From Aspergillus flavus (Eukaryota; Ascomycota; Eurotiomycetes; Eurotiales; Aspergillaceae), in NCBI RefSeq assembly GCF_009017415.1, contig NC_092408.1:3534001-3598000 (forward strand): a stretch of DNA of 64,000 nucleotides. Reading direction: 5' to 3'. Positions 1 to 12,400 of this stretch are shown here, piece after piece. The translations under genes and the position numbers were made by a program. The notes below the pieces were generated by a model. That model was not told where the DNA came from and ran no database searches. It worked only from the letters and a program-made list of their open reading frames with translations. Each line of letters starts with the position of its first letter. Position 1 is the stretch's first letter.

Positions 1-1610
1 TACAGCGCCTGCAAATCAGCATCATAGTCGCCCACACCAGTGTCGAAGTAGTTGAAGACGATATCGGGCATATCAAGCGGATCAGCAGACCGGAGAGTGA
101 CACTCCCCGCGGAGTTACGGGGATGACCTTTCAAGATAGCCCAGGTAAACCAATCATGCTCACTGGTGGCATTGATACTATAGTTGGGGAAGTAACCACG
201 GAAATTGACTGGGCCACCGAAGACAAACACATCGTAGGAGTCGTCGGCCGTGACGCTGCTCTTATAGAACATTGTCGCCGCCAGTCCGGAGGAGGAGTAG
301 ATGCCCCGGTCTTTCAGGATGGGGGTAGGGGTTTCCCATCGGTCGATGCAGGGGTCGGCTTCGCCATTCTCGCTGAAGGTGCAGCCGTCCAGGACGGCCC
401 AGTCCTTGGGAACGTGGCCCTGCACGGTGATCTCGTAGTGATCCTGCAGGTTGGTTCCCACGCCCGGCAGGTCGGAGATCACCTTGATTCCGAACTTCTG
501 GAGCTCCTCGGCTGGGCCGACACCGCTCAGTTTGAGGAGTTGGGGAGAGTTGTACACGCCGCCGGCGACGATGACTTCGCGCGAGGCCTGCGCTGTACCT
601 GGTGTTCCCTTGGAGTAGTCGTTTGCGAGGGGGCTGGCGCGGTAGAGGTGCTGGCCATCGAGGAATTCGACGCCGGTAGCGCGGGGTGGGTTCTCAGACT
701 CGTCGAAGGTCACCTTGGTGACAAAGCAGTTGGTGCGCACGTCCAATGGGTATTTCTTGCTGCCATCATCGTTCTTAGCATCGCGGACAGCGAGAATGAA
801 CTCACGGGGTCCGTTCCGGTGGGCGTCGTTGGTCGAGATCGGGATCTGATAATAGCCCGGCTTGGTATCGCGGGTTTTCTTGTCGGCATTCGCATCACCG
901 GCAAGAAGGGTTCCAACGTTGAAGATCGTGTTTGTATGGTTACCGAGAGCAAAGGCACCGCCCAGGAGCAGGCTGAGAAGCTGGGGGTCCTCCAAGACCA
1001 GGCTGAGGGGGGCGGTCTCGGTATGGAGCCAGCCGTCGTAGCCATGGCCTTTCTGTCCAGGGAGGAGGTAGTTGTTGTTCTCTAACTTGGCAAAGTACTT
1101 GCGCATGTTATCCGGAGACCAGGAGCCATCACCGGTAAGGGTGGCAATGTATTCGAAGTCGGACTGATGAGGATAGATCGCGATCAGAGCATTATGCGCA
1201 GTGCAACCGCCTAGGGTTCCCGTACGAGGATAGAGGGTCCCCTTCATGGTGGAGCCCTCTGGTGGGTTCAGACCGGTATATATTTCACCATCCGGGGTCT
1301 CGTAGCTTGTTTTATAGTCCCGGGCCTGTCTCTCTTCATCTGCGTAATGACGAACAAAGAAGTTCCAGGACATCTCCTCATCCTCGGAGGCCTTTGCGGA
1401 GTAGGCAGGAATAGAATAGTTGAGGTTCAGGCCCTGATCATCACCAGCCTCGATCAGCAGCGTCTTATGTCCTGCAAGGGCCAGACGAGCAGCTAACGGG
1501 CCACCACCTGCTCCAGATCCCACAACCACATATTCGTATCCAGTGAGATTGACAGCCGTCGTCAGGCCAGTGCCCACGGCCAGAAGGCCCAACAACTGCC
1601 GAACAAACAT
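1..1610 (-). CDS. Secreted GMC oxidoreductase (3' end cut by window edge)
   Basis: A single uninterrupted frame runs from the ATG at 1610-1608 to the window edge, giving 536 codons. The protein begins with a hydrophobic signal peptide of about 19 residues, followed at residues 31-37 by the FAD-binding loop GSGAGGG (Rossmann fold), and then a GMC-type block GCTAHNALIAIYPH. Near the edge comes the family pattern HPRNSAGSVTLRSADP. Members of the glucose-methanol-choline family oxidise alcohols or sugars with FAD and reduce O2 or quinones; a signal peptide implies an extracellular enzyme. The C-terminal part with the catalytic His/Asn lies outside the window, so activity cannot be judged and the substrate cannot be read from this sequence. 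The long open frame on the opposite strand (123-1085) is a mirror of this gene's codon bias. Confidence 0.93.
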   Translation of the reverse strand, partial: MFVRQLLGLLAVGTGLTTAVNLTGYEYVVVGSGAGGGPLAARLALAGHKTLLIEAGDDQGLNLNYSIPAYSAKASEDEEMSWNFFVRHYADEERQARDYKTSYETPDGEIYTGLNPPEGSTMKGTLYPRTGTLGGCTAHNALIAIYPHQSDFEYIATLTGDGSWSPDNMRKYFAKLENNNYLLPGQKGHGYDGWLHTETAPLSLVLEDPQLLSLLLGGAFALGNHTNTIFNVGTLLAGDANADKKTRDTKPGYYQIPISTNDAHRNGPREFILAVRDAKNDDGSKKYPLDVRTNCFVTKVTFDESENPPRATGVEFLDGQHLYRASPLANDYSKGTPGTAQASREVIVAGGVYNSPQLLKLSGVGPAEELQKFGIKVISDLPGVGTNLQDHYEITVQGHVPKDWAVLDGCTFSENGEADPCIDRWETPTPILKDRGIYSSSGLAATMFYKSSVTADDSYDVFVFGGPVNFRGYFPNYSINATSEHDWFTWAILKGHPRNSAGSVTLRSADPLDMPDIVFNYFDTGVGDYDADLQAL

Positions 1611-1667
1611 GATTGAAAATCAGATAGTGTGCATGTTGCTCCAGAGAGAGACGGACTTCGGACGATT

Positions 1668-2238: not shown

Positions 2239-2267
<29 letters not shown>
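2239..2267. repeat. Poly-T tract, 29 nt
   Basis: Uninterrupted run of 29 T. It is a simple homopolymer in an intergenic region; no target-site duplication or element is visible next to it. Confidence 0.9.
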
Positions 2268-3179: not shown

Positions 3180-3562
3180 ATGCCTTCTATCAAGACTTCT
3201 GTCGCTCTCCTCGCCATACTCAGTCTATATCTCAAGAGTGTACTGGGTTTCTTTCCGCAGACCTTTACTCATGACAGTACTACCAGTAACAATGTTCCTA
3301 CCCCTACCCCCCACTCCCACGCCTACAGCTCTTCTAGAGACCACCAGCCCCTTCGATCGAGAGGATGCCCTCCAGGTTGAGCAGAGACAAGTATGTCCTA
3401 CCAACAAGACCTTCTATTCTTAAACATATCCAGTCCCAGTACTCACAATACCTGCTTTAGAAACAATGCGATGGGACCTGCACCTATGGGCTTTGCTTCT
3501 GCACCCCCTACCATTGGTGTCACTGTAATGTCCATAAGGCACACTGTGTTTGCAGATGGTAG
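3180..3562 (+). CDS. Small secreted cysteine-rich peptide, three exons
   Basis: Model: exons 3180-3285, 3338-3390 and 3461-3562, giving 86 residues. Exon 1 encodes a clear signal peptide (MPSIKTSVALLAILSLYLKSVLG). Exon 2 encodes an acidic linker ending in VEQRQ, like a propeptide boundary. Exon 3 encodes a compact 33-residue tail with eight cysteines spaced C-x3-C-x4-C-x1-C-x5-C-x1-C-x6-C-x1-C, ending in RW before TAG. Intron 2 (GTATGT donor, CTTTAG acceptor, 70 nt) is convincing and joins the frames exactly. Intron 1 is less sure: donors at 3238 or 3286 and acceptors after 3328 or 3337 all restore the frame. Eight paired cysteines in 33 residues fit a disulfide-stabilised effector, defensin-like or antimicrobial peptide, but I recognise no named family and assign no activity. 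It lies about 1.6 kb from a secreted oxidoreductase, divergently oriented. Confidence 0.55.
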
Positions 3563-4765: not shown

Positions 4766-5918
4766 ATGACTCTCAGAGTAGCAGAAAAGACCTCGAAAAC
4801 AATCAAATCTGAGTCCCCATTGGCAGACGGCTTTAATCCCACACCCGGAAACTCTTGGGGCGTGGAAATCTCAAATAGGGCCAGTGAGACCGACAAACTG
4901 CGCCAAAAGGTGGAACAGATGAACGAGAAGCTTGACAAGTTGCTCAAGCAGAATGAAACATACCACGCGACAAGTGAGTTCGGAGGAACTGGTCAGGACG
5001 ATACCTATAATAAATCTGGCTGGCCAGCGGACCCGAATGACGAATACTTGGGGCAGGCTGTAGAGGATGATGGCTGTCAAGATGCCTACTGCGAACACTC
5101 GTGGACGGAAGAGGATGAAATGCCGGAGCTGGAGAATGTGAACGGTGATTCAGGACTCGGGCACGAGTGGACAGCTGAAGATTCGTGGGGGTTGGGGCGT
5201 GCGCATGATGATTCAGGACTCGGGGACGAGGTTGCTTTGACTGAGACTAACGTTGAAGCCGATGAGTTACGCGACCAGGTGAAATGTCTTCAGGCGAGGT
5301 TGGCTGATCTATTGGCCGAGAATACTCAGCTAACCATGAAGGTTAAGGAGCTCGTAGGGGGAAGGGACGATTTAATTCCATCAAGGAATTGCTTCCTCTC
5401 ACTCTACAAGTGCCAGAAGCTTCAACGTGCTCTGACTCTAGATGAATGCGAACATCTTGTCCATGCAAGCACCAAAGTCGCGAGTGGGGACGTCATGGCT
5501 GACAGCGAGCTGTATATCTCAGGGGAGCGGAAGGACTACGATGTCTTCGTGGATCTGTATGGAGTAGATCCGCATGCTGTTCCTTCAGTGTTGAGTAAGT
5601 GACTAGAACCCCTCATCACGGTGTTAGCTAACCAGATGCACAGAGGACCAGCACACGATCGAACTGGTGAACGCGCACGCTACTATCTTGGCCTCGAAGC
5701 ACAAGACCTACACATCAAAGTTTGAGGAGCGTTTTGCACGCTTTATCACGAATCTTCGGCGCACTGGCTATCCGGAAGACTATCTTATCGGGTTCATGGA
5801 CGATGTGGGTATTCTGGAACTACAGGCAAGCTACACAGCTTTCAGGAATGCCCTCCTTACTGAGGTCAGCGACGCTTTAAAGGCCGAGGTAATGAATGAC
5901 CCGGTAAACTCATGGTAA
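4766..5918 (+). CDS. Coiled-coil protein of unknown function, two exons
   Basis: Exons 4766-5594 and 5644-5918 with a 49-nt intron (GTAAGT...CACAG) give 367 residues. I do not recognise a family. The N-terminal part has a short heptad stretch around residues 38-65 and a stronger leucine-rich coiled coil at about residues 165-197. Between them lies a very acidic segment with imperfect internal repeats (DSGLG twice; SWTEED and EWTAED). The second exon is mainly helical and charged. No signal peptide or membrane segment is seen. The ATG is preceded by a C/T-rich leader, which supports this start. It may be a scaffolding or structural protein, but that is a guess from the coiled coils alone. Confidence 0.7.
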
Positions 5919-6675: not shown

Positions 6676-9401
6676 TTACTCGGCATCCATATCTTCGTCC
6701 AGGTCAATAGCGTCAGGGTTCGCAGGAGCAGCTGGCTGCTCTTGGCCAGGTGGTGGAGGTCGGTTTCCACCCTCGGGGCCTGTGCTGGCAGCGACAAAGC
6801 CCACAGGAGCACGCGCTTGTCGTTCCAGGGCTGCCATAGCGTCTGCTGTCGAACCATCCACATCTCCTTCCTCGGCGCCCTTTTCGTCGCCGTCTTGAGC
6901 CCGCTGTTGGCTGCGAGCAATAGCCTGGGAGGCGATGAAGTTGACGTCGGTGCTGTCCAATAATGTTAGCTTTGATCCATAGCGTTGTCAACTTAAAAGA
7001 GAGTACATACTTGTACTGTGCTTGAACACTTCTCTTGATACGAAGCATCTCCTTGAAGGTATCTTCGTTGCCATGTTGAACTTCGAATGCCTCCCATTTC
7101 TGCCAGAAAGGAGCGTTCGTCCGGGGGTCGCAGAACTGAGAAGCGTGGCCATAGATTGCGCGGGCTCGGTCGATTTCGCCAAGTCGTCGTTCCATTTCTG
7201 CAAATTTGAGGCACATCTCCTTGGCTTCTTGATCAGGCAATGCCGCAATAGCACGTTCGTAGATTGGTCTTGTAGAAGGTAATCCAAAGTTCGACGCGGA
7301 TTTGGTAATGTAGAACTCAAACATCTCGAATCTGTCCTCGTCGGACACCGCACGAGTAGCACGCTCGTAGATACGCATGGCGTGGCGGGCTAATCCACGT
7401 TCCTCTTCAAGATTGCCATACATTAGATAGAGCGGCTTGGCAAACTTGGGAGGACATCCATCCAGGGCCTGTTCGAAGAGGTCTCGTAATCTTTCAATAC
7501 CAATCTTCCGATCAACAGCTTTAGTCAAGTAGAGGTTCCAAAGCTCGAATGCAACCGGGTAGCTGAAGAGATCTAAACCTCGCTCGTAAACCTTGAATGA
7601 ATCCTCGAAGTACTTGTGCTCCTCCAAAAGATTGGCATAGTTGACCACAGTTTGGGGCGTGGCGATGCGTAGCTCGAAAATCCTCTCGTAAACCTTCTTT
7701 GTCTCTTCCAACGACGCGACGCTTTCAACCAAATCAACGTAGAAACTCCACAATTTCCAGCTCTTGTGAACTCGTTGCTGAGGCGAAAGGTTCTCATCGA
7801 AGTAGTCGACTGTTGATTTCTTCGGCGCTTGCGTTGCTTTCGCCATAACCTCAACGGCTTTATCGAAGTTCTCGCCGCGGAGTTCCATTTCAGCCCATTC
7901 ACACCACGTCTCGGCGAGCTCAGCAACCGATTTGAAGGGGACCTTCACAGCCTTCTCAAAGATTACCCTAGCTGTATCCAGATCTCCTCCGCTCTCGTAG
8001 AATTTAGCGTAGTTGACCCAGAGCTCGGAGAACTTGCCATGAGCCTTCTTAGGGCTTATAGCCGCGATGGCTGCCGTGTAAGTGTTGACGATTTCTTGTT
8101 TGTTGTCACCCCACAAAGCAACCCTCTTCTCCCACTCGATGACATTGTTAGGGTTCTGTCGTAGCAATACATCATTGACCAGGAATGGCCGGCGGTCCAT
8201 GAGCTGTTCGAACCTCAGCATTCGGAGATCGAGATCGAAATCTGCCTCTTCATCGGATTGGCCTTTATCAGCACGAACAGCTGCTGCTTCCATCAAATTA
8301 CCAATAATTGACTCTTCAAATTCGACATAGGAGTCGAAAATAAGTGTAAAGTCGCGAACCGTCATGACCGTCGTGATGCCCTCTTCGAAGGTATCTCGAG
8401 CCTTTTCGAAACTACCCTTCGTGATCCAATATGTTGCTAATCCAGCCCACAATTTCCCTCTCTGGTCAGCGAACCGGTCGATTCCACTGCGGAGAATAGC
8501 GTCCACATCAATGCCGACATGCGGGCCAGTTTCGATTTGCTTCGCCTTCGACACGAGCAAGTCCACCATTTCAGTCCACAGCTGGAAGTGGCTCTTCCCC
8601 TCCTTAGACTGGAATCTTGGGTTGTCGAGTATCTCCATATACCGCTTTACAGCTTCCGTATACTGTCCCATCTCCACAAGAAGCTCAATGTATTCCTCCG
8701 CGTTCTCCGGGTGGATCTGCATGTACCGAGCCCAGATTTTCACGGCTGTCTGGCCAGAAGCGGAACGCGCGAAAGCCTTATAAAGCTTCCATATCCTGTT
8801 ATGTTGAGTGATCGGTAGAGCTCGTAGTGCGCGGTCGAACGTACGTCGAGTTTGCGTCACGAGGGGTTGTTGAAGTAGGAATGAGAGGTACAGTTCCCAA
8901 ATCCGTGGCATTTTGTTGAGGAGAATAAGGGCACGCTCGAAAAGTGCGTTGACCTTCTGGTATTCGGGTCGGTATATAGTGGGGTTGCGACCTTTAAGAT
9001 GCTTCGTGCGGAATTCCAAGTACTACTAAAATCAGCAAACTTCAATGCGAAAAGGTGGGGCTGAAGGAAGCAGCGTACCATCTTCCACAGTTTGTAAGAT
9101 CTTGGGAGCTGCTTGCAAGCACGCTCCATAACCTGCGATTGATTAGCAGCACGTCCAGCAAGGTCCATCGCAACTGAAACATACAAAAGCCTGCTCGTAG
9201 AGCGTCCCATGCTGATGCTTATATTCGATATAAGCAAGCCATGGTTTGATACTGCCGGTGTCCCGAAGGAGATCCTGCTCATATACAGTATCCTGGTCGG
9301 CCTGTGAACAGATGGTGCAGTTAGCCTTTGTCCTATCAAATTCCGACGCCACAACTCACTATCAAGTAGAGGTCCGGCCCTGAGGCCGACGTGCGATCCA
9401 T
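6676..9401 (-). CDS. syf1: Pre-mRNA splicing factor SYF1 (HAT-repeat protein)
   Basis: Five exons on the minus strand: 9401-9360, 9301-9185, 9132-9079, 9022-7011 and 6952-6676, giving 833 residues; all junctions are canonical GT-AG and keep the frame. The protein is made almost entirely of half-a-TPR (HAT) repeats with repeated aromatic/acidic patterns such as KLWKMYLEFRTKHLKG and RIWELYLSFL. It ends in a Pro/Gly-rich, acidic tail (DLDEDMDAE). Syf1 is a structural subunit of the NineTeen/Prp19 complex, which activates the spliceosome in the nucleus. Length and the conserved stretch ending in QYNTDVNFIASQA fit the fungal ortholog (XAB2 in animals). It is divergent from the V-ATPase subunit D gene with 319 bp between the start codons. 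Confidence 0.95.
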
Positions 9402-12321: not shown

Positions 12322-12392
12322 GCATCATTGGTCTAGTGGTAGAATTCATCGTTGCCATCGATGAGGCCCGTGTTCGATTCACGGATGATGCA
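12322..12392 (+). tRNA. tRNA-Gly (anticodon GCC)
   Basis: A 71-nt cloverleaf: acceptor stem GCATCAT pairs with ATGATGC and is followed by discriminator A; the D arm contains GGTCTAGTGGTAGA (A box), the anticodon loop TTGCCAT carries GCC at 12354-12356, and the T arm contains GTTCGATTC (B box). No intron is present. Confidence 0.97.
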
Positions 12393-12400
12393 CTGCTTTC

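What the first reader, a model, noticed from the sequence alone, without database searches (positions are those of the whole stretch)
3180..3562. Eight-cysteine secreted peptide gene not visible as a normal open frame
Three short exons encode a signal peptide, an acidic spacer and a 33-residue tail with eight cysteines in the spacing C-x3-C-x4-C-x1-C-x5-C-x1-C-x6-C-x1-C, including three CxC pairs. No single open frame covers it, so automated annotation may miss it. The signal peptide, the exact frame closure at intron 2 and the stop directly after the last cysteine motif all argue for a real gene. I recognise no defensin, hydrophobin or killer-toxin family with this spacing; it may be an undescribed effector or antimicrobial peptide.
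Basis: partly seen in the sequence, partly recalled or inferred. Interest (0 to 1): 0.75.

Follow-up and report, generated by a model that had tools for sequence, protein, structure and literature searches.

The report
Overlooked fungal eight-cysteine secreted peptide

Summary
The eight-cysteine tail is real and belongs to a small gene family; part of the proposed gene structure is probably wrong. The frame at 3461-3562 encodes 33 residues with the stated spacing. A second locus in the same genome encodes a 33-residue tail with exactly that spacing (16 of 33 identical, no gaps). It also has a signal-like N-terminus, an intron at the same place and phase, and a stop at the same position. Twelve of the 16 shared residues use different codons, so the protein frame, not the DNA, is what is kept. 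Intron 2 (3391-3460) is supported. Intron 1 (3286-3337) is not: the Aspergillus novoparasiticus relative reads straight through it, the second locus has no such intron, and it holds no branch-site-like motif. The window copy therefore probably carries a frame break in its Pro/Thr-rich stretch, either an assembly error or a damaged allele. Pfam, PDB and protein searches found no known family. The two public proteins found for these genes lack the cysteine tail. Best guess: a secreted, mildly cationic, disulfide-rich, beta-rich peptide with a gamma-core-like motif, used against competing microbes. The function is inferred, not shown.

The parts
3180..3390 (+). Exon 1 of the likely two-exon gene: signal-like N-terminus (MPSIKTSVALLAILSLYLKSVLG...), Pro/Thr-rich stretch, mildly acidic spacer ending ...DREDALQVEQRQ. 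Its first and last parts lie in two different frames.
   Evidence: tblastn of P0001 gives two pieces in two frames: residues 1-44 at 86.4% and residues 39-115 at 87.0% identity, the latter running on through intron 2 into the start of the last exon in a shifted frame; translation
3286..3337 (+).
   Evidence: P0001 continuous across it; no CTNAC motif, donor GTAACA; second locus has a single uninterrupted exon 1
3391..3460 (+). Intron, 70 bp, phase 0, GTATGT...CTTTAG
   Evidence: same position and phase in the second locus
3461..3562 (+). Final exon: 33-residue eight-cysteine tail C-x3-C-x4-C-x1-C-x5-C-x1-C-x6-C-x1-C, then R-W-stop
   Evidence: second locus G000:C2:6214376-6214465 minus, E 6.6e-4 for this one genome (0.002 with the 86-residue query; 2.8e-4 in the reverse search), same spacing

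Best explanation
This is one of two genes found, in an Aspergillus of section Flavi (inferred), of a small secreted cysteine-rich peptide family. Shown by sequence: a two-exon plan with a signal-like N-terminus and spacer in exon 1, a phase-0 intron two residues before the first cysteine, and a complete 33-residue eight-cysteine module in exon 2. Inferred: the spacer is removed after secretion, perhaps after the single basic residue just before the module. The eight cysteines then pair into four disulfides that lock two beta-hairpins. The resulting small cationic peptide (about +2, about 3.5-3.9 kDa) acts outside the cell, most likely on the envelope of competing microbes, as disulfide-stabilised antimicrobial peptides do. 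The window copy has a probable frame break in exon 1, so as assembled it may make no peptide; the second locus reads as intact.
For: Second locus with identical spacing and 16 of 33 identical residues. 8 of 25 non-Cys positions are identical, reached by 24 of 200,000 shuffles. Same exon length (102 nt), intron phase and stop position. 12 of 16 shared residues, including 5 of 8 Cys, use different codons. Relative in A. novoparasiticus. Net charge about +2 for both modules, and GXC-x(3-9)-C gamma-motif matches at the same two places in both, against the consensus quoted in PMC10973029 (passages read). Both AlphaFold models have four strands and no helix.
Against: No expression, secretion or activity data, and no dedicated signal-peptide predictor. 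Models are of low confidence (pLDDT 62.5 and 66.2, pTM 0.24 and 0.27). The gamma-motif is loose (my judgement; its chance rate was not measured). The charge is modest. The second locus's hydrophobic stretch is weaker (best 12-residue mean 2.05, against 2.37 here) and falls below the 2.2 level used for the window-wide count. Codon positions 1 and 2 are not significantly more alike than position 3 (40 of 66 against 14 of 33, p 0.09). Neither copy has a dibasic Kex2-type site just before the module (sequence reading). Only one sequence from another named species was found, and its deposited frame does not show the cysteine tail.
Confidence: 0.45

Rival explanations
1. Three-exon gene: intron 1 (3286-3337) is really spliced in this species and the gene is intact.
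For: The joined frame closes and keeps signal, spacer and tail; 52 bp is a plausible fungal intron length (recalled); 3' end TTCTAG.
Against: P0001 is continuous here with no frame change; no such intron at the second locus; no CTNAC motif; 55 other choices also close the frame.
Confidence: 0.15
2. The window copy is a true pseudogene (a fixed frame break), and only the second locus makes peptide in this strain.
For: The two parts of exon 1 lie in different frames relative to P0001.
Against: The cysteine exon is still fully open; a one-off assembly error in a low-complexity stretch would look the same; splicing could bypass it.
Confidence: 0.4
3. Secreted metal-binding peptide: cysteines (and histidines) bind copper or zinc rather than forming disulfides.
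For: Three CxC pairs and 8 Cys in 33 residues; 4 His in the window module, 3 in the second.
Against: A signal-like N-terminus favours oxidised cysteines; aromatic residues are present, unusual for metallothioneins (recalled); only two His are shared (H18, H28).
Confidence: 0.12
4. Host-directed effector acting on a plant or insect.
For: Small, apparently secreted, cysteine-rich, with few relatives in the protein collection (1 protein each).
Against: No host-linked evidence; the same traits fit self-signalling or competition. An antifungal peptide of A. niger (AnAFP) is reported to act in its own colony (abstract of PMC11802824).
Confidence: 0.15
5. The 115-residue protein deposited for A. novoparasiticus is the true product and the cysteine frame is chance.
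For: It is continuous in that species.
Against: The window has a stop in that frame inside the intron; the second locus keeps the cysteine frame through different codons.
Confidence: 0.03

Closest known systems
P0001, hypothetical protein BDV33DRAFT_198657 of Aspergillus novoparasiticus
   Same: Residues 1-44 match the first part of exon 1 (86.4%); residues 39-115 match the second part of exon 1, then the intron and the start of the cysteine exon in a shifted frame (87.0%)
   Different: No frame break in exon 1; the deposited model reads through the intron and so lacks the cysteine tail
Second locus G000:C2:6214370-6214705 (minus) = L002 1495-1830; P0004 is its unspliced predicted fragment from public contigs
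   Same: Cys spacing, tail length, intron position and phase, stop position
   Different: GC-AG intron of 72 bp; no Pro/Thr stretch; 48% identity in the tail; about 100 kb from the contig end
Fungal antifungal proteins (PAF/AfpA-C, bubble protein, NFAP2)
   Same: Small, secreted, cationic, cysteine-rich (abstract start of PMC6182064), gamma-motif and beta strands (PMC10973029, passages read)
   Different: No sequence match for the window module in the PDB or for either module in Pfam; the Foldseek row for 7ztj, an antifungal protein chimera, has E 8.4 and prob 0.04 and carries no weight
Hydrophobins and hyphosphere proteins (HFS)
   Same: Eight cysteines, secreted
   Different: Patterns C-CC-C-C-CC-C, and C-CXXXC-C-C-C-C-C in proteins of 219-280 residues (PMC8596622, passages read), differ from three CxC pairs in 33 residues

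Membership tests
Hydrophobin | C-CC-C-C-CC-C pattern with two CC doublets | tested here: not met
   No CC doublet in either module; pattern as quoted in PMC8596622
CS-alpha-beta defensin (plant or fungal) | Alpha helix linked to a beta sheet by disulfides (CxxxC and CxC spacing recalled) | tested here: inconclusive
   CxxxC at residue 3 and CxC pairs exist, but both low-confidence models lack a helix; no Pfam defensin match
Fungal antifungal proteins (AFP/PAF/BP) | Sequence similarity to a member of the class | tested here: not met
   phmmer of the window module against the PDB at E up to 10 returned one unrelated chain (3tbn, E 0.063); no such family in Pfam for either module. The second module was not run against the PDB sequences
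Fungal antifungal proteins (AFP/PAF/BP) | Five-stranded beta sheet (PMC10973029) | tested here: inconclusive
   Four strands in both models, which are of low confidence; no significant Foldseek match
Disulfide antimicrobial peptides with gamma-core | GXC-x(3-9)-C motif | tested here: met
   Two placements in each module, at the same positions; a loose motif
Disulfide antimicrobial peptides with gamma-core | Kills or inhibits microbes | not testable with these tools
   Needs peptide
Metallothionein | Thiolates bind metal, no disulfides, usually no aromatic residues (recalled) | not testable with these tools
   F, Y and W present in the window module; metal binding not measurable here
Small secreted cysteine-rich protein (broad class) | Signal peptide, small size, high cysteine share | tested here: met
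   8 Cys in 33 residues; hydrophobic 12-residue mean 2.37 near the start, a level of 2.2 reached by 29 of 652 ATG-started open 35-codon stretches of the window. The second locus reaches only 2.05, and no dedicated signal-peptide predictor was available, so secretion is likely, not proven

The most novel reading that the evidence does not exclude
A previously undescribed peptide family of section Flavi Aspergilli, with a compact 33-residue, four-disulfide, two-hairpin scaffold (three CxC pairs and a gamma-core) carried on a single exon. Gene models cut it out of the public proteins, so it would be a new antimicrobial scaffold hidden in public genomes.
Probability: 0.45. Interest if true: 0.55.

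Novelty: new variant of a known kind. Interest (0 to 1): 0.4.

Why it matters
Two genes on different contigs with one cysteine scaffold, both truncated in the public proteins found because the scaffold sits alone behind a short intron, suggest that such peptides may be under-counted in fungi. The scaffold is small enough for chemical synthesis, so activity can be tested directly. The case also shows how a frame break in low-complexity sequence can pass for an intron.

Tried and rejected
Pfam scan of the joined frame, the window module and a 39-residue open piece holding the second module: no family, apart from an E 2.9 match of 10 residues for the last, which carries no weight. P0001 and the second locus's exon 1: 0 families. 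PDB sequence search with the window module: one chance row, 3tbn, E 0.063, 16 residues. Viral contigs: 24 pattern stretches, 0 relatives. Prokaryote genomes: 25 pattern stretches, 0 relatives. A 43-residue two-row alignment against the protein collection: no candidate. Foldseek against the PDB: 0 rows for the window module, 2 rows with E above 7 for the second. Bacterial-type promoter/terminator scan: not informative for a fungus. A third locus in this genome was not found at E 10 or below, but that search is exon by exon and scores only its best candidates.

Literature: in the listings of six searches (titles and abstract starts, open-licence papers only) I saw no title or abstract start that describes such a peptide, and the locus tag of P0001 is in no held paper. 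The spacing itself cannot be searched as text. Passages were read in PMC6182064, PMC10973029 and PMC8596622, and the abstract of PMC11802824. 'Undescribed' therefore means not found in these searches.

I considered and set aside taking the 115-residue deposited protein at face value.

Full report
What is there. The window lies at G000:C5:3534001-3598000 of a 37.7-Mb genome in 8 contigs. The only relative found with an organism name is from Aspergillus novoparasiticus, so I infer an Aspergillus of section Flavi (placement of that species recalled); the window's own species is not established. The finding's three-exon join gives an 86-residue frame ending in a 33-residue tail with eight cysteines in exactly the stated spacing.

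Is it more than chance? The exact spacing occurs once in the six frames of the window and in none of 100 Markov-1 copies, while eight cysteines in 33 open codons appear in 3 of 100 copies. This is suggestive but post hoc. The decisive evidence is independent. The 33-residue tail finds one other place in the genome, on contig C2, with E 6.6e-4 (0.002 with the 86-residue query; 2.8e-4 in the reverse search). There the minus strand of L002 holds an open 54-codon exon with a hydrophobic start and a 72-bp GC-AG intron with CTGAC, its A 18 bases from the end. The final exon of 102 nt encodes GTCVGRCYNGHCICVPFHACNCLVNGGHCVCRL-stop. The two tails align without a gap, with all eight cysteines in register and 16 of 33 residues identical. 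Outside the cysteines 8 of 25 are identical, a level reached by 24 of 200,000 shuffles. Twelve of the 16 shared residues, and 5 of the 8 cysteines, are written with different codons, as expected if the peptide rather than the DNA is conserved. The comparison of codon positions points the same way but is not significant (40 of 66 against 14 of 33, p 0.09).

Gene structure. The intron at 3391-3460 is supported by its boundaries, by a CTNAC motif near its end (the motif as a branch-site consensus is recalled) and by the same position and phase at the second locus. The intron at 3286-3337 is not supported. P0001 from A. novoparasiticus is continuous from the signal through a Pro/Thr-rich stretch into the acidic spacer. 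When it is compared with the window, its residues 1-44 match one frame and residues 39-115 another. The second locus has one uninterrupted exon here. The proposed intron has an uncommon donor (GTAACA; my judgement, no donor profile was scored) and no CTNAC motif. One search lists 55 other choices that close the frame too. The simplest reading is that the family's gene plan has two exons and that the window copy carries a frame break inside the Pro/Thr-rich stretch, whether from assembly or mutation.

Annotation. P0001 runs through the intron into a shifted frame, and P0004 ends inside the second locus's intron, so 2 of 2 public proteins found lack the cysteine module. This also means that the protein searches could miss relatives whose models are cut in the same way, so a restriction to section Flavi is not established.

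How it may work. A signal-like start and a mildly acidic spacer followed by a compact cysteine module fit a secreted pro-peptide. No dibasic site directly precedes the module; a single R or K does (sequence reading). Both modules carry about +2 net charge and conserve two placements of the GXC-x(3-9)-C gamma-motif, which a review describes as shared by plant defensins and fungal antifungal proteins (PMC10973029, passages). Two AlphaFold models, each led by a different member, both show four strands and no helix, but with low confidence, and no solved structure matches significantly. I therefore favour a secreted disulfide-rich antimicrobial or competition peptide. Every functional step is inference, and effector, self-signalling and metal-binding roles remain open.

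Comparison. Hydrophobins are excluded by the cysteine order. Membership in the AFP/PAF/BP group is not supported by sequence. Membership among CS-alpha-beta defensins is unproven and the models show no helix. [quoted passage not shown] Orphan families in that class are common in fungi (recalled), which limits the interest; the density of CxC pairs and the module hidden on its own exon raise it somewhat.

Noticed in passing
window 3-1619 (-): GMC oxidoreductase-like gene (PF00732, E 1.1e-17) on the other strand from the peptide gene, running off the window start.
   Followed up: partly
window 4766-5918 (+): Uncharacterised gene, apparently in two exons; only sub-threshold Pfam matches, to coiled-coil-like models.
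   Followed up: partly
window 6713-9019 (-): Pre-mRNA splicing factor SYF1.
   Followed up: no
window 12322-12393 (+): tRNA-Gly (gcc), the only tRNA gene ARAGORN reports in the window, run with the bacterial code.
   Followed up: no
L002 1495-1830 (G000:C2, about 100 kb from the contig end): The second peptide gene uses a GC-AG intron and lies beside an amino-acid permease (PF13520).
   Followed up: partly
window 2239-2267: Poly-T tract of 29 bases between the GMC oxidoreductase gene and the peptide gene.
   Followed up: no
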